IMG/VR virus record: IMGVR_UViG_3300030107_002014
Location: 2,693 to 30,433 of that record
Reading direction: 5' to 3' (one strand)
Origin: a virus
Length of the DNA: 27,741 nt
Positions 3,879 through 27,005 of this stretch are shown piece after piece (position 1 is the first letter of the stretch; each line of letters opens with the position of its first letter). A program made the position numbers and the translations under genes. The notes beneath the pieces are model-generated. The model was not told the origin of the DNA. It did no database searches and saw only the letters and a list, made by a program, of their open reading frames with translations.

Positions 3879-4108
3879 ATCTACCTCTTTTCTACCTATC
3901 TATTAAAGTTTACTCATTCTCCTTCAACAGAGATTTGTCAAGTTTAATATGTTTTGTAGTAGAAATTTTATAAGGCTTACCTGTTCTATTCTTTTTCTTT
4001 GGTACTGTTTCAACATCTACTACCATCATAGTTTTTCTTTTTTTACTTACTGATATAACTTTTCGTTCTTTCATATCTACCTCTTTCTGTTTATCTATTT
4101 AAGTTTTA
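3876..4108 (-). repeat. Duplicated 5' leader upstream of two early genes
   Basis: The about 37 bases before the start at 3878 (3876-3912) and those before the start at 4074 (4072-4108) are clearly related on the minus strand. Both read AACTT-AATAGATA, then a short variable part, then AGAAA-GAGGTAGATATG. The shared block includes the SD and an A+T-rich stretch that could be a -10. A partly similar AGAGGTAGAAGATG leader precedes the gene starting at 5516. This suggests a common translational or promoter signal for these early genes. Confidence 0.55.
3910..4074 (-). CDS. Small basic protein, 54 aa
   Basis: A complete frame starting MKERKVISVSKKRKTMMVVD and ending LDKSLLKENE, with GAGGTAG four to five bases upstream of ATG. 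It is lysine-rich and is not recognised. The good SD, shared leader with its neighbour and consistent orientation support a real gene despite its size. It is the first gene downstream of the large structured RNA, whose 3' hairpins end about 30 bases before its start. Confidence 0.62.
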   Translation of the reverse strand: MKERKVISVSKKRKTMMVVDVETVPKKKNRTGKPYKISTTKHIKLDKSLLKENE

Positions 4109-5106
4109 AGCTGGAATCCTGAGATTATGGATTACAATGATATAACTTTAGCTTAGGATTTTTCCTAAAACTCCCTTATTTGTTAGGAGGCATATCCACT
4201 CAGCTTTTATTCACCGAGTATTATATCAAGCCCAATAGGTATCGCCTATCACTCTTACTTCTGAGTTATTTCTACCCCTACTGAACTATTACTGGATTGC
4301 CACCCAATGAATAGTATTTCGGAATACCTAGAGAACTTGGAAGTTCATCTAGACATCTTCTATTTCAAAGACGCTCGAGGGCTCTATGCTCTCAGAAGTT
4401 TCAAGACTTGCTCCGATTGGTATTGCCAATCACTCGTCATATTGCCCGTTGAACTATAAAGCACGCTTTATAACAACTCGGCTATTCATCTTGATTATAA
4501 GTTGAATAGACTATCAAATGAAATGTGCGCTTGAAATAGCAATCAGGACTTCCTTTTGAGAAATCTATTGATTAGCACATCTCTATGTTCCTTATAGGAA
4601 AAGGTTTACATGGTCTTGGCTGTCTTATACTTACACTTTCGCATAAGTATCTATACACCGACTAAATACAACAACCTGGCTCCTACACCTTTATGTCATA
4701 TCCTATGGATTATTCCTATTGCTATCACTAGCTCAATTGATGTTGATACACCAATATAGACTCCAACTCAGCGCCTAAAGGACTTACCTTGTTGTTTTCT
4801 ATGTATTCCAATTGCATACTCAAACACCAAAGTATATTGATGTCGCATTAAATTAGCTCTTTCAGACTAAGTTAACACTTTATCCTTGTTTCCAAGTTTA
4901 TTTAACGATTATATACAACCGATTCTTTTATGGTAGAATGGACCAAATCTTTTTATGGACATAGTGGAGACTTATCATAATGATATATGAGATATACTGA
5001 TAATAAAAAGGAGACAAATCCCCACTAAATTTGAGCGTGACGAGGTAAAATGATAATTACCAACCAATTGATATTAGAGGTAGGCTAACTAAGGTATATC
5101 ACGCCC
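4107..5106 (-). ncRNA. Candidate giant structured non-coding RNA (about 1 kb), GOLLD/ROOL-like in size
   Basis: About 1 kb has no plausible gene on either strand in an otherwise gene-dense genome, yet hairpins follow one another along it. On the minus strand: GCGTGA/TCACGC closes a 70-nt multibranch domain (5035-5104); AGTGGGGA/TCTCCACT (5019-5026 with 4963-4970) encloses TTATCA/TGATAA; CTTG-GAAA-CAAG (4885-4896); GCTA-GTGA-TAGC (4721-4732); a 10-bp stem with GAAA loop (4627-4650); a long-range ATGTGC/GCACAT pair (4523-4528 with 4575-4580); CTATTCA/TGAATAG (4482-4509); an 8-bp TATAAAGC hairpin (4455-4472); a hairpin duplicated at 4410-4435 and 4229-4254; nested stems at 4328-4352 and 4314-4327; and TTAGGA-AAAA-TCCTAA (4153-4168). 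G-U pairs in three stems are A-C mismatches on the plus strand, so the minus strand is the RNA. Giant ornate RNAs of this size are known in phages (GOLLD, ROOL). Assignment to either is inference, and both ends are approximate. Confidence 0.72.
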
Positions 5107-5118
5107 TAAATAATTTTA
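5106..5118 (-). promoter_or_regulatory. Possible -10 element for the structured RNA
   Basis: Minus-strand TAAAAT (5113-5118, five of six matches to TATAAT) lies seven bases upstream of the GGGCGTGA that opens the first stem, and overlaps the stop codon of the upstream gene. No convincing -35 hexamer is present at 16-18 bases, so the RNA may instead be processed from the operon transcript. Confidence 0.25.
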
Positions 5119-5322
5119 ACACCTAATACCTCTTAAGCGTATTTCCATTAACTTTACATCCATATCATTAACCATGTCATAGATTTCTTCAACTGAATAA
5201 TTTCTTACTATCATTGCTTCATCAGTAGAACTTAATTCTACCTTATTTAAGTCTAAATATGAATTTCTAAAGTGTTTCATTAGATTATCACGCTTACTAT
5301 AACTTAGTTCTCCGATAGTCAT
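5116..5322 (-). CDS. Hypothetical protein, 68 aa
   Basis: A small charged protein (MTIGELSYSKRDNLMKHFRN and on to EIRLRGIRC) that I do not recognise; probably helical. AAGGAG lies eight bases before the ATG, and the ATG overlaps the TGA stop of the upstream gene (ATGA), so the two are translationally coupled. It ends about ten bases before the first stem of the structured RNA, making the RNA probably part of, or immediately downstream of, the same transcription unit. Confidence 0.72.
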   Translation of the reverse strand: MTIGELSYSKRDNLMKHFRNSYLDLNKVELSSTDEAMIVRNYSVEEIYDMVNDMDVKLMEIRLRGIRC

Positions 5323-7189: not shown

Positions 7190-7961
7190 AAAGATTAAAC
7201 ACGTAAGACATTACGTCTATGATACGAAAGAGGAATTTTTAAAGGACCATCCCAAAGGGATACTTCACTCCGAATGGAGAGATGCTAAACAAGGGGATTG
7301 GGTTAAGAGTGATGATGGTCGTATTGTTCAGCTTTTAAAGGTTTCTAGTAATCTATCGCATCCAAAAGATTCTAAAAACTATAAACAATCTAAAGGCTAT
7401 GTAAGAACTATAGTTGGCACATTTATCAATTCTAAGAAAACTTACATGGACACCGACTTTGAAAAACACCCAAATCGCTACACATTTAGCACCAAAATCA
7501 AAAATACATCTAGTAGGGTGAAGGAGAGGTCCAAATGTACGAACAGAGAAAAAATTTTCGCCACTAGCGTGGCAGTAGGAAAAGACGCTGTGAGTGCTTA
7601 TATGAAAGCATTTACTGAAAAAAATCGTAATACGGCTAGAAAAAAAGCTGTAATATTACTTAAACAGGAGCGAGTAATGAGTGAAATAGAAAAAACTTCA
7701 AAAGAAATAGCGAAAGAGCTAGGGATTGACCATGCATATATATTAGGTTCCCTAAAGCAATTAGCTGATACAAGTGAAGACCAAAATATTGCATTGCAAT
7801 CTTTAAAAGAACTAGGAAAAGCAATCGGTACGCTAGGTAATCAAGTTAAGAAAATAGAAACTGGAGTAGTTGGAATGTTCCAAGGGTTTAGTCCTGAAGA
7901 AATAGAAGGAGCTTCTAGAGCTATACTTCCAGAAACAACTTCCGAGGAGGAAAGAAAATGA
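7179..7961 (+). CDS. terS: Probable terminase small subunit
   Basis: DNA-recognition subunit of the packaging motor. The start is a GTG overlapping the preceding gene. After an N-terminal domain of unknown role (residues 1-105), residues about 120-170 read as the HTH region seen in small terminases: KIFATSVAVGKDAVSAYMKA, then NTARKKAVILLKQERVMSEI. A helical segment (175-220, IAKELGIDHAYILGSLKQLA and NIALQSLKELGKAIG) matches the helix-rich part that follows in Terminase_2-like proteins. The C-terminus is acidic. It is longer (260 aa) than most small subunits because of the N-terminal extension. The assignment rests on the HTH pattern and on position 1.3 kb before terL. Confidence 0.72.
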   Translation: MESKKIKHVRHYVYDTKEEFLKDHPKGILHSEWRDAKQGDWVKSDDGRIVQLLKVSSNLSHPKDSKNYKQSKGYVRTIVGTFINSKKTYMDTDFEKHPNRYTFSTKIKNTSSRVKERSKCTNREKIFATSVAVGKDAVSAYMKAFTEKNRNTARKKAVILLKQERVMSEIEKTSKEIAKELGIDHAYILGSLKQLADTSEDQNIALQSLKELGKAIGTLGNQVKKIETGVVGMFQGFSPEEIEGASRAILPETTSEEERK

Positions 7962-8842
7962 TATGTCCACATTGTAGTAGTATGTTGACAAAAAAAGAAG
8001 GTAAAAAACGCAACAAAGATACTGTTAAACAACAATTTAGCTGTAAGTCTTGCGGAAAATGGTTTTCTATACCAATACCTTCTGATGTTAAAGAATATGA
8101 CAAGAAGCACATAGAACCAGGAAAATTATTCCAAGTAAAAAGCAATGAAAAACTACGAGTGCACGGATTAACGGATATACACGTAGGAGCACACGAATTT
8201 GATTTGAAAAAATTTCAAGAGGCAATTAAAATTATATATGAAGACCCAAATGCACGATGGTTTGGTAATGGAGATATGATAGAACTGATTCCCCCTAATT
8301 ATAAAATAAATCAAAGAGGGCAAAGTATTCCACCAGAAGAGCAATATCTAAGCTTCTTAAAACTGGTACAACCCATACAGGATAAGTGCCTATTTATAAG
8401 AGGAGGGAATCACGACTATCTAAGAAGTTTTAACATATTAGATTTTGATGTATGTAAAACGTTAGCAAGTGAAATGGATGTTCCATATTTTAGATTGCCT
8501 GGATACGCACAAATAACTATTGGCGACAAAGATTGGTTTCTTGTTAGTGGACACGGAAAGAGTGGAGCTAAAAACGGAGACACAGAATTGGATAAAATGG
8601 CTTCAGTTTATTCTGATGGCGATGTATACTTTTTAGGACATAATCATCAGTTGTATTGTAAGCCAATTGATTCATTGACAATAGAAGACGGAGAAGAAAG
8701 TCTAAAACGAAAATGGTATGTAAGAGGAGGGTCGTTCCTTAGATACGCAGACTATGCTCGTTATAGCTTCTATGGGATTCAACGTACTGGTTGGATTACT
8801 ATGGAATTTACTAAAGATAAAATTAACTGTTGGGAGAATTAA
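7958..8842 (+). CDS. Metallophosphoesterase with N-terminal zinc ribbon
   Basis: The N-terminus is a zinc ribbon (C3-x2-C6 and C29-x2-C32), followed by a calcineurin-like phosphoesterase domain: D73-I-H75, G105-D106, G150-N151-H152-D153, H199 in SGHGKSG, and G227-H228-N229-H230. All five metal-binding motifs are intact, so an active phosphomonoesterase or phosphodiesterase/nuclease is expected. The zinc ribbon suggests a nucleic-acid substrate. It overlaps the terS stop (4 bases) and is co-transcribed with the terminase genes; its place between terS and terL suggests a role at DNA packaging or end processing, but the substrate is unknown. Length 294 aa is normal for the fold plus ribbon. Confidence 0.9.
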   Translation: MICPHCSSMLTKKEGKKRNKDTVKQQFSCKSCGKWFSIPIPSDVKEYDKKHIEPGKLFQVKSNEKLRVHGLTDIHVGAHEFDLKKFQEAIKIIYEDPNARWFGNGDMIELIPPNYKINQRGQSIPPEEQYLSFLKLVQPIQDKCLFIRGGNHDYLRSFNILDFDVCKTLASEMDVPYFRLPGYAQITIGDKDWFLVSGHGKSGAKNGDTELDKMASVYSDGDVYFLGHNHQLYCKPIDSLTIEDGEESLKRKWYVRGGSFLRYADYARYSFYGIQRTGWITMEFTKDKINCWEN

Positions 8843-21721: not shown

Positions 21722-24700
21722 ATGGCTAATACAATTAAAGTTAAAAGAGGTACAAATCTCTCAAATGCTGGTACCCCAGCTGCAGGTGAATTAGTATGGA
21801 ATAGTAATACAAATAAATTGTATGTTGGTAATGGCTCTACTGCAGCTACTGGTTTAACAGCTATTGGTGGTAACATTTATACTGCTGGAACTAATATTAC
21901 TTTAAATGGAAGTGAATTTGATGTAGATGATGCCTTTCTAAAAAATGATGCTAATGATACTACAAGTGGAACAATCACAGCTGCTGGATTTACAACTTCT
22001 GGAAACTTAACTCTTGGTGGACATGCAGTAAATGATATTGATATTGGTTCTGAATTCGTTGATACCGATGACCACTTAATGACATCGGGTGCAATTAAAG
22101 AAAAGATTGAAAGTTATAGCTACTTAACATCTGTACCTAATCATAGTGCTGCTCTTCTTACATCTGGAACTTTACCATTAGCAAGATTATCAAATATATC
22201 AGATAGTCAAATAGCTTCTGATGCACAAATTTCAGGTTCTAAAATAGAAGATGCTTTCTTAAAAAATGATGCTAATGACACTACGAGTGGAACAATAACT
22301 GCTGCTGGTGTGACATTAAGCGGTACTTCAAAGTTGAAAGTTCCAGGGACTATTGAACATGTTGGTGATGATGATACTTATATATTTCTTACTGATAATA
22401 GAATTAGACTCTACGCTGGTGGTAGTCTAAAAGTAGATACAAATGAAACTTATCTAACATCTTCTTCATCTATTTCCTCTTTATCTGCTACTGATGATAG
22501 AGATTTTAAACCTAATACTATTGATACAAGTGGACAAGTAAGAGCATATTTTACAACATTAGAAGGTATGACTGGTAGTGCTGGAAGTGATTATCAAGAT
22601 ATGTTGGTATTGGACACTTATTCAGATGGAACTGGTGGAGATAGTAATGCTTTAGTATTTGATAAAAGCACTCATAATATTTATCATTATTTGGCAGACC
22701 AAGCAGCATCAACTTGGGGAACTCCAAAAAGATTAGCTTATATAGAAAATGGTTCTAACAATAGAGTAATGACTGCATCAAGTTCTTCTACAGTAAATGG
22801 AGAAGCTAATCTTACTTTTAATGGAACACAATTAACCAATACTGGAGATATTAAAATAGCTTCTGGAGCTTTAGGTGTAAGTACTAATCCTTTAGCAGAT
22901 AATGGTAGTATTGTTGCAACAAATGATATTATTGCTGGATATGGTGGTGGTGGTATAGCATTAACTATTAATGACGGTGGTGGTAATGCTAATGTTTGTT
23001 TTAATCATAGAGATAAAACTCCAGAACAAAATGGACAATCTGCAAGAATTGAAGTAAATACTGATGCTACTTCAACAGAGGGAATAATGTATTTTGAAAC
23101 TTCTACTGCTGATGTTACTTCTGGAAGTTCAGTAAGTTTGGCAAATGCTATGACACTTGCTCATGATTATATGGATATTCCAAATAAAATAAGGCATATG
23201 GGAGATACTGATACTTATATGCAGTTTTCAGCAGCAAATACATGGAAAGTATATTGTGGTGGGGATAATCCTTTGACAGCTATAGCTAATAGAGTTTATG
23301 TAAATGCAACAGGAGCTAATGGATTACTTATTAATAATGATGAGGGTAATGCTGCTGATAGTGCAAGAATATTTTTTGAAGGAACTTCTACGACTGCTTT
23401 AATGCAACAAGGAAATGATTTTAGTATTAGAAGCGGAGCAACAACTGGTAGTTCAAGTGGAACTGAAAGATTTTATGTAAATTCAAGTGGAGCAACTGTA
23501 GTAGGAGATTTGGCAGTTACTGGTAATTCAGTATTACAATATGGATTAGTAGTTAATGAAGGTAGTCACGATGCAGACTTTAGAGCAGAAAGTAATGGAT
23601 ATGCAAATGCTTTAAAAGTAGATGCGGGAGCAGATAGAGTAGATGTTGGTGTATCAATGAAAGCCGAATATGGTTTACATATGGATGGATTAAATAGAGC
23701 TGGTGGAAATGCTTCAAGTCATCACTTAAGAACAAGGCATAACATTTTAACATTTAGTGATAATACTAATTGGGATGGTGCAATGGTTATCAATACGGAT
23801 ATTACAAGAGCATCCGCTCGTATGTGTAGTATTCATGTTCAAGGGTATGCTTATGGAGAAGCAGAAATTATAGATTTTACAATATCATTTTATACTTATT
23901 CGGGAGCAAACGGACAAGATGGAGTAGCAGGATATACATATGGTCCAGTTTGTCTTGATAGAGGAACAGACGGACATCAAAAATTCGTAGGTATTAATTC
24001 TGATGGCAATGTTGCCATTGCGATTGATGATTACGATGGTGCAAATAAATATTATTATGGATTTAAAGTTACCTTAGATAATCATTTAAACGGAGTTGGA
24101 CATAGTGCTTATAGTAGTTGGACAGTAACAAAATCAACAACTGATGGATTTGGTTGGTTAGATAAAAGAATACCTGTTGGAAATATTCGTATGGACCAAA
24201 GAAATGTTGGTATTGGATTAATTGATAATGGCACTACTCCTGATGCAAGATTGGTAGTATCAGAAAACGGTGGTTCAACAGATGATTTCTTTAAAGTAAA
24301 TCCAGCTAATGGTCATAATAGAACAATGGAAATTGCAGGAGATGCAATTAATGTTACAGTAACTGGTGGTTCTTCTACTACATTAAGACTAAATGAAGAT
24401 GGTGGAGATGTAGCAGTATATAATCATTTAATTATGGCTCCAACTAAAAAACTTTATTTAGATAATGGTGGCGATACTTATATCTTTGAAGAAAGTGCTA
24501 ATAATGTAATGTTTAAAGTTGGCAACAATAATAATTTAAGATTTAATAGCACAGGTGCAATCTTTAATGACGGTTCTATAGATTTAGATTTTAGAGTTGA
24601 ATCTAATGGCGATGCTAATATGTTATTTGTAGATGGTGGTGCGAATCGTGTAGGAATTGGTACAGGTAGCCCAGATAGTGAATTACACGTTTCTAATAAT

Positions 24701-25759
24701 ACTGCTAATCTTAAAATAGAAAGTACTGGTTCAGGGAATGCATCTTATTTACATATAAAAAATACAACTAACCAATATGATATATATAATAATGCTGGAG
24801 ATTTAGTTATTGATTTAAATGGTGTAGCAGAAAGAATGCGAATAGACTCAAATGGAACTTTGTGTATTGGACATACATCAGGTTGGAGTTCTACTGTATT
24901 AGATTTAGGTGCTACTTCAAATCATATGCGAGTAGGTGGCACTATATATTTATATGATAGCAATAGATACATAAGAAGAAATGGCGATGATATAGATTAT
25001 TACTCTAATAGTGGTAGCCATAATTTTACTTCAGGCAATGTTTTAATAGGACACAATACAGAAGTGCAAACAATAGGACAAACTGCTGCATTTCAAGTAT
25101 TAGGAACAGGAAATGGAGATAGTCATTTAAATATTGGAAGATTTAGCAATAATGCTAGTGCTCCTATGCTTACTTTCACTAAATCAAGAAGTGGAACAAT
25201 AGGAACATCTACTGTTATTCAAAATGGTGATGCTTGTGGAACTATTGGTTGGGCAGTTGCAGATGGAACAGATTTTGAAAGTTATATTGCTGCTATTGCA
25301 ACACACGTAGATGGAACACCAGGTGGTAATGATGTTCCAGGAAGAATAGAATTTAATACTACAGCAGATGGCTCAGCAGGCTCAATAGAAGCAATGAGAC
25401 TTGATAGTAGTCAAGATGCACACTTTGACCAAGATGTAATTGCATTCTCAACAACTCCATCTGATATAAGATTAAAAAAGAATTTTACAAAGATTGAAAA
25501 TGGATTAGATATAGTATTGCAATTAGAAGGACATACATTTAATTGGAAAAAAGAAAGAAGTGGAGAAAGATTAAGTGCTGGATTTAAAGCACAAGAAGTA
25601 GAAAAGATTTTACCACATTTGGTTGATGAGAAGAAACTTCCATTACGAGCAGATGATGATAAAGAATATAAGATTTTACGATATGAGGAAATGATACCTT
25701 ATTTAGTAGAAGCAATTAAGGAACTTAAACAACAAATACAGGAGTTGAAAAATGGCTAA
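21722..25759 (+). CDS. Tail fibre 2 with C-terminal Peptidase S74 chaperone, 1345 aa
   Basis: A very large trimeric fibre. The N-terminal module (MANTIKVKRGTNLSNAG; GELVWNSNTNKLYVGNG) resembles that of fibre 1. The shaft is repetitive, with recurrent DGGGDTYI/F, FR-ESNG-AN-LKVD and GIGTGSPDSELHVSN blocks and a duplicated LKNDANDTTSGTITAAG. The last 99 residues form an intramolecular chaperone of the S74 family: S1247-DIRL-K1252 gives the Ser/Lys catalytic pair, with cleavage expected before S1247, and the fold ends in a coiled coil (EAIKELKQQIQELKN). After trimerisation the C-domain is usually released. Residues 650-800 (DGAMVINTDITRASARMCSI; YGFKVTLDNHLNGVG) may be a globular receptor-binding or enzymatic domain. 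SD AAGGAGT. Confidence 0.9.
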   Translation: MANTIKVKRGTNLSNAGTPAAGELVWNSNTNKLYVGNGSTAATGLTAIGGNIYTAGTNITLNGSEFDVDDAFLKNDANDTTSGTITAAGFTTSGNLTLGGHAVNDIDIGSEFVDTDDHLMTSGAIKEKIESYSYLTSVPNHSAALLTSGTLPLARLSNISDSQIASDAQISGSKIEDAFLKNDANDTTSGTITAAGVTLSGTSKLKVPGTIEHVGDDDTYIFLTDNRIRLYAGGSLKVDTNETYLTSSSSISSLSATDDRDFKPNTIDTSGQVRAYFTTLEGMTGSAGSDYQDMLVLDTYSDGTGGDSNALVFDKSTHNIYHYLADQAASTWGTPKRLAYIENGSNNRVMTASSSSTVNGEANLTFNGTQLTNTGDIKIASGALGVSTNPLADNGSIVATNDIIAGYGGGGIALTINDGGGNANVCFNHRDKTPEQNGQSARIEVNTDATSTEGIMYFETSTADVTSGSSVSLANAMTLAHDYMDIPNKIRHMGDTDTYMQFSAANTWKVYCGGDNPLTAIANRVYVNATGANGLLINNDEGNAADSARIFFEGTSTTALMQQGNDFSIRSGATTGSSSGTERFYVNSSGATVVGDLAVTGNSVLQYGLVVNEGSHDADFRAESNGYANALKVDAGADRVDVGVSMKAEYGLHMDGLNRAGGNASSHHLRTRHNILTFSDNTNWDGAMVINTDITRASARMCSIHVQGYAYGEAEIIDFTISFYTYSGANGQDGVAGYTYGPVCLDRGTDGHQKFVGINSDGNVAIAIDDYDGANKYYYGFKVTLDNHLNGVGHSAYSSWTVTKSTTDGFGWLDKRIPVGNIRMDQRNVGIGLIDNGTTPDARLVVSENGGSTDDFFKVNPANGHNRTMEIAGDAINVTVTGGSSTTLRLNEDGGDVAVYNHLIMAPTKKLYLDNGGDTYIFEESANNVMFKVGNNNNLRFNSTGAIFNDGSIDLDFRVESNGDANMLFVDGGANRVGIGTGSPDSELHVSNNTANLKIESTGSGNASYLHIKNTTNQYDIYNNAGDLVIDLNGVAERMRIDSNGTLCIGHTSGWSSTVLDLGATSNHMRVGGTIYLYDSNRYIRRNGDDIDYYSNSGSHNFTSGNVLIGHNTEVQTIGQTAAFQVLGTGNGDSHLNIGRFSNNASAPMLTFTKSRSGTIGTSTVIQNGDACGTIGWAVADGTDFESYIAAIATHVDGTPGGNDVPGRIEFNTTADGSAGSIEAMRLDSSQDAHFDQDVIAFSTTPSDIRLKKNFTKIENGLDIVLQLEGHTFNWKKERSGERLSAGFKAQEVEKILPHLVDEKKLPLRADDDKEYKILRYEEMIPYLVEAIKELKQQIQELKNG
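21933..22310 (+). repeat. Repeated 57-bp block in fibre 2
   Basis: The coding block for FLKNDANDTTSGTITAAG occurs at about 21933-21989 and again at about 22252-22308, with only a few, mostly synonymous, differences (GATACTACAAGT versus GACACTACGAGT). This points to an intragenic duplication in the N-terminal shaft. Confidence 0.6.
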
Positions 25760-25995: not shown

Positions 25996-26340
25996 ATGGC
26001 AGGTCCAGCAGTAGGAACAACTAATGTAGGTATTAGAGCAATAGGTAGTGCTATTGGTGAAGCTACTAATGTTATACAAACGTCTAATTTAAGTTTGGCA
26101 AGTTTACTTAGTGGCGATAGCCATGGTGGTATACAAAACACTTTTGTCAATAATGACGATAGTGGTCCAGCAGATACTTTCAATAGAATAGGTGGAACTA
26201 ATAATCCTATACAAAGCACATCATTAGATAATCCTGGTGCAAGTATTATGAATAATTTGTCTTCAGCTCCATTTCATATGAGCCATACATTTGGTGGACA
26301 ACACGCTGATTTAGGTGGCGGAGGAGGTCCAGGTCGATGA
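25996..26340 (+). CDS. Gly/Asn/Ser-rich hypothetical protein, 114 aa
   Basis: A low-complexity protein: alanine- and glycine-rich N-terminus (AVGTTNVGIRAIGSAIGEAT), histidine and asparagine in the middle, and a glycine-rich C-terminus (GGQHADLGGGGGPGR). It starts one base after the previous stop. The composition suits an internal virion or tail-tip protein, but nothing identifies it. Its stop overlaps the methyltransferase start (ATGA), implying coupled translation. Confidence 0.62.
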   Translation: MAGPAVGTTNVGIRAIGSAIGEATNVIQTSNLSLASLLSGDSHGGIQNTFVNNDDSGPADTFNRIGGTNNPIQSTSLDNPGASIMNNLSSAPFHMSHTFGGQHADLGGGGGPGR

Positions 26341-27005
26341 AAGGTTATGCATATGGTGCAACTTATACTGTAACAGAAGATGCAATAATAGATAAAGCAA
26401 CAGGTTGGGATGTAATGTCTACTTGGGAAACTCCTATTATGCAAAAACACGCTGATATAGTGTGTGCTAATGGTGGACATATATTAGAATTTGGCTTTGG
26501 TATGGGAATTAGTGCTGGTTTAATACAAGAAAAAGATATTGAATCGCATACGATTATAGAAATCAATGATGGGATATATGCTAATTTAGTAGAATGGGCT
26601 AAAGATAAGCCTAATGTTGTAGCAGTTAAAGGAGATTGGTATAATGATATACCTAAAGATAAGAAATATGATGGTATTTTTTATGATGGTTTTGGAGATA
26701 TGATGAATAAAAGATATTTTCCTACAAGAATTATGGAACATTGTAAGGTTGGGACTATCCTTACTTGGTATAATAATCTCTTAAAAGAAGAAAGCCAATA
26801 TGATGGTGATGTAAAAACAATGAATAGATTACATAATGGTAAAGCATTGGGAGATTTAGAACAATTTAAAAGTCCAGAAAGAATTACTTACGAAACAGTA
26901 AGTTTAACAATACCAGATGAAGCTAGAGTAAAATGGTATTTAGAGGGAAGTGGTAATACTTACTATGCCCCTAAATTAATAGTGGATAATAATGATTTAA
27001 ATTAA
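26337..27005 (+). CDS. SAM methyltransferase resembling guanidinoacetate N-methyltransferase (GAMT)
   Basis: The Rossmann fold is complete: motif I LEFGFGMGIS (50-59), motif II acidic E75 in IIEINDG (ribose contact), then VVAVKGDW (94-101) and YDGIFYD (111-117). Beyond motifs common to all class I enzymes, residues match GAMT all along: VMSTWETPIM (GAMT VMERWETPYM; E31 is the substrate-contact Glu), the IIE-NDG and KG-W blocks, YDG(I)-YD with D117 as the catalytic Asp equivalent, and a C-terminal TYYAPKLIVDN like the GAMT YYAFPQMITPL. Length 222 aa is close to GAMT (about 236). So a guanidino-group methyltransferase (free metabolite or protein arginine) is likely, but the substrate is not known. 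It follows the fibre genes, so a virion, host-surface or metabolic target is possible. Confidence 0.82.
   Translation: MKGYAYGATYTVTEDAIIDKATGWDVMSTWETPIMQKHADIVCANGGHILEFGFGMGISAGLIQEKDIESHTIIEINDGIYANLVEWAKDKPNVVAVKGDWYNDIPKDKKYDGIFYDGFGDMMNKRYFPTRIMEHCKVGTILTWYNNLLKEESQYDGDVKTMNRLHNGKALGDLEQFKSPERITYETVSLTIPDEARVKWYLEGSGNTYYAPKLIVDNNDLN

What the first reader, a model, noticed from the sequence alone, without database searches (positions are those of the whole stretch)
4107..5106. About 1 kb gene-free, hairpin-packed region: candidate giant phage RNA
In a genome where gaps are usually a few bases, 1 kb has no plausible gene yet more than a dozen good hairpins tile it, from a closing GCGTGA/TCACGC stem to a 3' TTAGGA hairpin. 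Several loops are GNRA on the minus strand and at least one long-range pair is present. Size and style match known giant ornate RNAs from phages (GOLLD, ROOL). It may be one of those or an undescribed class. Function in the phage is unknown.
Basis: partly seen in the sequence, partly recalled or inferred. Interest (0 to 1): 0.92.

Follow-up and report, generated by a model that had tools for sequence, protein, structure and literature searches.

The report
Divergent phage GOLLD RNA
The gene-free stretch in this phage encodes an ~840-base structured RNA of the known GOLLD family, whose relatives self-assemble into hollow RNA cages; it is a diverged member that database thresholds miss and that lacks one of the known cage-contact hairpins.

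Summary
A whole-window Rfam scan missed it, but scanning the region alone gives RF02032 end to end (positions 1-416, 106 bits, E=1e-28). That is below Rfam's curated 150 bits but far inside the E<1e-5 used in the 2025 GOLLD structure paper. Fourteen virus records, the window's included, match GOLLD at 106-141 bits. Across 11 distinct sequences, 97.4% of cells of 149 consensus pairs are paired, with two-sided changes at 78 pairs, beyond all shuffles. The less conserved 5' domain also belongs to GOLLD: its profile finds the 5' part of 39 of 72 GOLLD loci collected only by their 3' end.

Corrections: the RNA is ~0.84 kb; the 'closing' GCGTGA/TCACGC stem lies upstream and is not conserved.

Distinctive points: this clade lies in the recombination-gene operon, has no tRNAs nearby, is swapped as a cassette between phages, and in 8 of 11 sequences (window included) lacks hairpin P21a, whose loop makes cage bridge B8 in the solved structure. 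Function remains unknown; cage formation is inferred.

The parts
4115..4955 (-). GOLLD RNA gene, ~840 nt; 5' end inferred from where conservation begins (AAAGATTTGGTCC at 4952-4940), 3' end from the last hairpin
   Evidence: Alignments of homologous loci; RF02032 match; covariation
4584..4955 (-). 5' domain (forms the cap in the solved GOLLD structure), not covered by the Rfam model
   Evidence: Profile of this domain hits the 5' part of 39 of 72 GOLLD loci found by their 3' motif, E down to 2e-14; helices 2-14 of the consensus lie here, most with compensatory changes
4116..4583 (-). 3' domain, the universally conserved GOLLD part
   Evidence: cmscan RF02032 positions 1-416, 106.3 bits, E=1.1e-28
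4630..4647 (-). Hairpin with GAAA loop in the 5' domain, probable equivalent of GOLLD P11a/L11a
   Evidence: CUUAUGC-GAAA-GUGUAAG in the window; GAAA-loop hairpin folds in most relatives; L11a GAAA described in PMC12286853
4415..4519 (-). Variable linker of the 3' domain (disordered and inside the cage in the solved structure); longest of the set here, with an added hairpin at 4455-4473
   Evidence: Alignment dips to about 50% identity here while the flanking RNA is >90% identical to L107; insertion relative to RF02032; lengths
4292..4307 (-). Core of hairpin P21b, loop GGCA; the partner hairpin P21a is missing
   Evidence: ATTGGGT-GGCA-ATCCAGT matches CTGGGGT-GGCA-ACCTCGG of high-scoring GOLLDs in length and loop; no second hairpin on P21
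4115..4133 (-). 3'-terminal hairpin P27 with invariant UAAUCUCA loop (4120-4127)
   Evidence: Invariant in all aligned homologues, stem covaries; L27 is a tertiary hub in PMC12286853
4956..5106 (-).
   Evidence: Not conserved in any relative; promoter and terminator counts are at chance level
3910..4074 (-). Short ORF (54 aa) right after the RNA, with a Shine-Dalgarno-like AAAGAGG; a different gene stands here in some relatives
   Evidence: Sequence; flank alignment; no Pfam family

Best explanation
Window 4955->4115 (minus) encodes a GOLLD RNA, an accessory gene in the leftward (recombination) operon of an environmental tailed phage. It is probably transcribed leftward with, or just ahead of, the Sak/PD-(D/E)XK genes during lytic growth. 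It folds into a 5' cap domain and a 3' ring domain and assembles, without protein, into a closed homo-oligomeric cage with the variable linker inside, as the solved env-38 GOLLD does. Shown here: RNA-level conservation, GOLLD membership of both domains, synteny, cassette-like exchange, absence of hairpin P21a. Inferred: transcription, cage assembly (I give about 0.7), and that half-shell closure relies on the retained P21b loop (bridge B9) and A-minor contacts rather than P21a (B8). What the cage holds or does is unknown for the family; my guess (about 0.3) is that it sequesters an RNA or ribosomal component during infection. The confidence given is for GOLLD identity.
For: RF02032 match over its full length, E=1.1e-28, 7.3e-31 for the window's own record; 14 virus records, the window's included, match at 106-141 bits. 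Covariation: 149 pairs, 97.4% of cells paired, 78 pairs with two-sided change against a shuffled mean of 56 and 12-18 when slid, score 0.584 vs 0.260, 0 of 500 shuffles. 5' domain homology to GOLLD loci, five of which were checked at 282-320 bits. Invariant UAAUCUCA loop, conserved GAAA hairpin. Same place and strand relative to TerS and PD-(D/E)XK in the relatives that have it. Cage structure and multimer evidence for the family: PMC12286853. GOLLD accumulation during lytic infection, and dispensability in one prophage: as cited in PMC7567579.
Against: Scores lie below Rfam's gathering cut-off of 150 bits. P21a, whose loop makes a cage bridge, is absent here, so a closed 14-mer cannot be taken for granted. 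No transcript data; no promoter or terminator signal above chance. No tRNAs nearby, unlike many GOLLDs.
Confidence: 0.95

Rival explanations
1. A GOLLD-derived RNA that is expressed but no longer forms the closed 14-mer: with P21a gone it makes half-shells, a smaller ring or only monomers.
For: P21a, whose loop makes inter-half-shell bridge B8 in PMC12286853, is absent in the window and 7 of the 10 other distinct sequences, while the GOLLDs of other lineages in which P21b was recognised also show a P21a hairpin.
Against: P21b (B9) is kept with its GGCA loop, and the rest of the fold is under clear pairing constraint. L098-type sisters keep two hairpins.
Confidence: 0.25
2. A long structured 5' leader or processed spacer of the downstream operon rather than an independent RNA.
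For: It sits inside a same-strand gene block and ends about 40 nt before an ORF with a Shine-Dalgarno-like sequence; no terminator was found after it.
Against: The downstream ORF differs among relatives while the RNA is kept; GOLLDs elsewhere are often followed or preceded by tRNAs instead.
Confidence: 0.05
3. A ROOL RNA or an undescribed class of giant RNA.
For: Size and phage setting are similar.
Against: No ROOL match at E<=10 in the region alone, where GOLLD scores 1e-28; both domains align to GOLLD.
Confidence: 0.01
4. Protein-coding or decayed-gene region.
For: Two antisense frames of 49-50 codons stay open, wholly or nearly, in the close relatives.
Against: Both frames are broken by stops in L098, L101, L102, L104 and L108; open-frame lengths are at chance level; the pairing constraint lies on the other strand.
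Confidence: 0.01

Closest known systems
GOLLD RNA (Rfam RF02032)
   Same: Full-length 3' domain match, homologous 5' domain, length about 840 nt (env-38: 833), variable linker at the same place, invariant 3' loop UAAUCUCA, GAAA hairpin in the 5' domain, phage-borne
   Different: 106 bits against 282-320 for five typical GOLLDs checked here; P21a missing; no tRNA nearby; located in the recombination-gene operon
GOLLD env-38 (cryo-EM, PMC12286853)
   Same: Two-domain layout; L117 and L134, found here with a Met-tRNA just upstream as described for env-38, share the 5' domain of the window RNA
   Different: env-38 has both L21a and L21b bridges (B8, B9); the window RNA has P21b only. The env-38 sequence itself was not available for direct alignment
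ROOL RNA
   Same: Giant ornate phage RNA that forms a cage
   Different: No sequence or structure match
ICP1 ~800-nt non-coding transcript (PMC7567579)
   Same: Abundant ORF-less phage RNA in a ~1 kb gap, no tRNAs
   Different: Compared with GOLLD/ROOL by length only in that paper; homology not tested here

Membership tests
GOLLD (RF02032) | Match to the universally conserved 3' domain covariance model | tested here: met
   Positions 1-416, 106.3 bits, E=1.1e-28; within the E<1e-5 criterion of PMC12286853
GOLLD (RF02032) | Rfam gathering score of 150 bits | tested here: not met
   106.3 bits here, 106-141 in the clade. The cut-off is a curation threshold, not a feature of the RNA; homology is independently shown by the 5' domain
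GOLLD (RF02032) | Separate, less conserved 5' domain of about 420 nt | tested here: met
   About 370 nt, homologous to the 5' domain of 39 of 72 GOLLD loci
GOLLD (RF02032) | Covarying secondary structure | tested here: met
   149 pairs, 78 with two-sided changes, 0 of 500 shuffles reach any of the five measures
GOLLD (RF02032) | L27 loop hub | tested here: met
   UAAUCUCA invariant in all 11 distinct sequences; its contacts were not tested
GOLLD (RF02032) | Two hairpins P21a and P21b carrying self-kissing loops (B8, B9) | tested here: not met
   Only P21b (GGCA loop) present in the window and 7 other sequences; both hairpins in L098, L101, L102 and in other lineages. A variation inside a shown homologue, read here as secondary loss; not one of the features by which the family is defined in Rfam
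GOLLD (RF02032) | Variable linker in the 3' domain | tested here: met
   4415-4519, variable between otherwise >90% identical RNAs
GOLLD (RF02032) | Kissing interaction between L20 and J13/15 (B7) | tested here: inconclusive
   Helix numbering could not be mapped without the figure; no clean complementarity was found by eye
GOLLD (RF02032) | Frequent tRNA neighbourhood | tested here: not met
   No tRNA in the window, its record, the relatives' loci or three records of 52-55 kb; a common but not defining trait
GOLLD (RF02032) | Homo-14-mer cage; expression in lytic growth | not testable with these tools
   Needs RNA biochemistry and RNA-seq
ROOL | Match to the ROOL covariance model | tested here: not met
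   No match at E<=10

The most novel reading that the evidence does not exclude
A natural clade of GOLLD RNAs that has lost the P21a kissing-loop hairpin (bridge B8) and so closes its cage with one loop-loop contact fewer per interface, or assembles into a different oligomer, giving natural mutants of the half-shell interface.
Probability: 0.5. Interest if true: 0.5.

Novelty: new member of a known kind. Interest (0 to 1): 0.38.

Why it matters
It shows that GOLLD RNAs in environmental phages reach well below the curated Rfam threshold and can be missed in window-scale scans. This clade adds phages without tRNAs nearby in which the RNA is swapped as a cassette in the recombination operon, which argues against an obligatory link with tRNA genes. 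[quoted passage not shown]

Tried and rejected
Whole-window Rfam scan: negative, a filter artefact overturned by scanning the region alone. Searches for the RNA in named phages and by pattern in GTDB genomes: nothing; weak 33-nt Campylobacter phage hits (E=0.3) discarded as chance. Terminase search in GTDB genomes: no relative. Host identification: terminase is only about 22-24% identical to Roseobacter and Vibrio phages and the portal only weakly like four scattered records, so the host stays unknown. Closing GCGTGA/TCACGC stem: rejected, not conserved. Promoter and terminator scan: at chance level. Coding hypothesis: rejected. Mapping bridge B7 (L20-J13/15): could not be settled.

Full report
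Observation. The block 4075-5115 on the window lies between small minus-strand ORFs and contains no plausible gene. The minus strand of 4120-5115 folds to -276 kcal/mol against -230 in dinucleotide shuffles (z=-6.7, 0 of 40), the plus strand only z=-1.4. Several coding windows also reach z of -4 to -5.6 in the same test, so folding energy alone would not settle it.

Relatives. Using the neighbouring Sak-type annealing gene as bait (identified), related environmental virus contigs were fetched. The block has syntenic homologues in L007/L008 (88% identity), L002 (65%), L006 and L009. A conserved 30-nt pattern from the 5' part gave further members, for 14 virus records matching the family model, including the window's own. 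Conservation starts sharply at AAAGATTTGGTCC (window 4952) and ends after the hairpin with loop UAAUCUCA (4120-4127); what stands upstream and downstream varies between phages.

Identity. Rfam on the whole window was negative, but three relatives matched GOLLD RF02032 at E 1.6e-29 to 2e-37. Scanning 4050-5150 alone gives GOLLD for the window too: 4583->4116, model 1-416 complete, 106.3 bits, E=1.1e-28. The other members give 111-141 bits. All are below the 150-bit gathering score. The structure paper PMC12286853 collected GOLLDs at a cut-off of 1e-5, which all of these pass. No ROOL match was seen.

Structure support. In the alignment of 11 distinct homologues, RNAalifold finds 149 pairs. Of all cells 97.4% are paired, 78 pairs have changes on both sides, and no shuffle of 500 reaches any of the five measures; sliding the partners by 1-3 columns drops paired cells to 37-45% and two-sided pairs to 12-18. 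Twenty-eight helices are counted, in both domains. The structure was derived from the same alignment, which favours it over the slid versions, and shared ancestry inflates cell counts, but the number of two-sided changes goes well beyond that.

The 5' domain. Rfam models only the 3' half. To test the 5' half independently, GOLLDs were collected by a motif from the 3' end of the Rfam consensus (72 loci); five checked score 282-320 bits. A profile of the 5' domain of the window clade then hits the 5' part of 39 of the 72 at E<1e-6, best 2e-14, in register. L117 and L134 among them have a Met-tRNA just upstream, the setting described for env-38, the RNA solved by cryo-EM as a 14-mer cage. The env-38 sequence itself was not available here.

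What differs. First, P21: the Rfam consensus and high-scoring GOLLDs carry two hairpins on P21, P21a (loop CGCAA, or GUCGAA in L165/L168, in line with the GC-to-CG switch that the paper reports for L21a) and P21b (loop GGCA). The window and 7 of the 10 other distinct sequences have a single hairpin whose 7-bp stem and GGCA loop match P21b; there is no room for P21a. L098, L101 and L102 keep both, P21a with the loop CUAAUUA, which holds the palindrome UAAUUA. The assignment of these hairpins to the paper's names rests on order, loop sequence and the reported dinucleotide switch, since the figure was not readable here. In the solved structure L21a and L21b form the self-kissing bridges B8 and B9 between the half-shells. 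Second, no tRNA is found in the window, the rest of its record, the relatives' loci or three records of 52-55 kb. Third, the RNA always lies on the strand of, and upstream of, the PD-(D/E)XK and Sak genes and divergent from the terminase genes, but the close relatives L004, L005 and L010 have no GOLLD match at E<=10, and neither does L003, whose contig may not reach the locus: an accessory gene. Fourth, L098 and L110 share 86-100% identity up to the first ~40 nt of the RNA and only about 50% after, while L098 and L101 are unlike upstream and 93-100% identical through the RNA: the RNA is exchanged as a cassette with a breakpoint in its conserved 5' block. The linker is variable among otherwise nearly identical RNAs and is longest in the window.

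Mechanism. Shown: RNA-level conservation, family membership, context, exchange. From the literature: GOLLDs form RNA-only 14-mer cages in vitro, accumulate in lytic growth, and one was dispensable for phage production. Inferred: leftward transcription with the recombination genes and assembly of a cage enclosing the linker. The cargo and benefit are unknown; sequestration of an RNA or ribosomal component is a guess.

Verdict. The structural variation at P21 is the one point worth bench work.

Noticed in passing
window 5010-5023 and 4974-5003, minus strand: A terminator-like hairpin followed by a promoter-like match just ahead of the RNA; counts in the region are at chance level, so only suggestive of a separate transcript.
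   Followed up: partly
L098, L101, L110 around the 5' end of the RNA: Recombination breakpoint inside the conserved 5' block of the RNA swaps whole GOLLD bodies between phage backbones.
   Followed up: yes
window 7958-8842: A 294-aa protein like DNA repair exonucleases (PHROG 7339), lying between the small and large terminase genes and strongly conserved (87-99% identical) across close relatives.
   Followed up: no
window 21722-25759: 1345-aa fibre-like protein; its C-terminal end (SDIRLKKNFTKIENGLDIVLQLEGHTFNWKK...) reads like an intramolecular chaperone/S74 peptidase domain, from my own reading only.
   Followed up: no
window 26337-27005: 222-aa protein with a motif resembling SAM-dependent methyltransferases (LEFGFGMG), no Pfam match, in the late-gene half.
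   Followed up: no
L117, L134, L136, L143, L158: GOLLDs with a Met-tRNA immediately upstream (L117, L134) or downstream (L136, L143, L158); the side differs between lineages.
   Followed up: partly
L165, L168: P21a loop GUCGAA instead of CGCAA, in line with the GC-to-CG switch of the self-kissing dinucleotide reported for L21a.
   Followed up: partly
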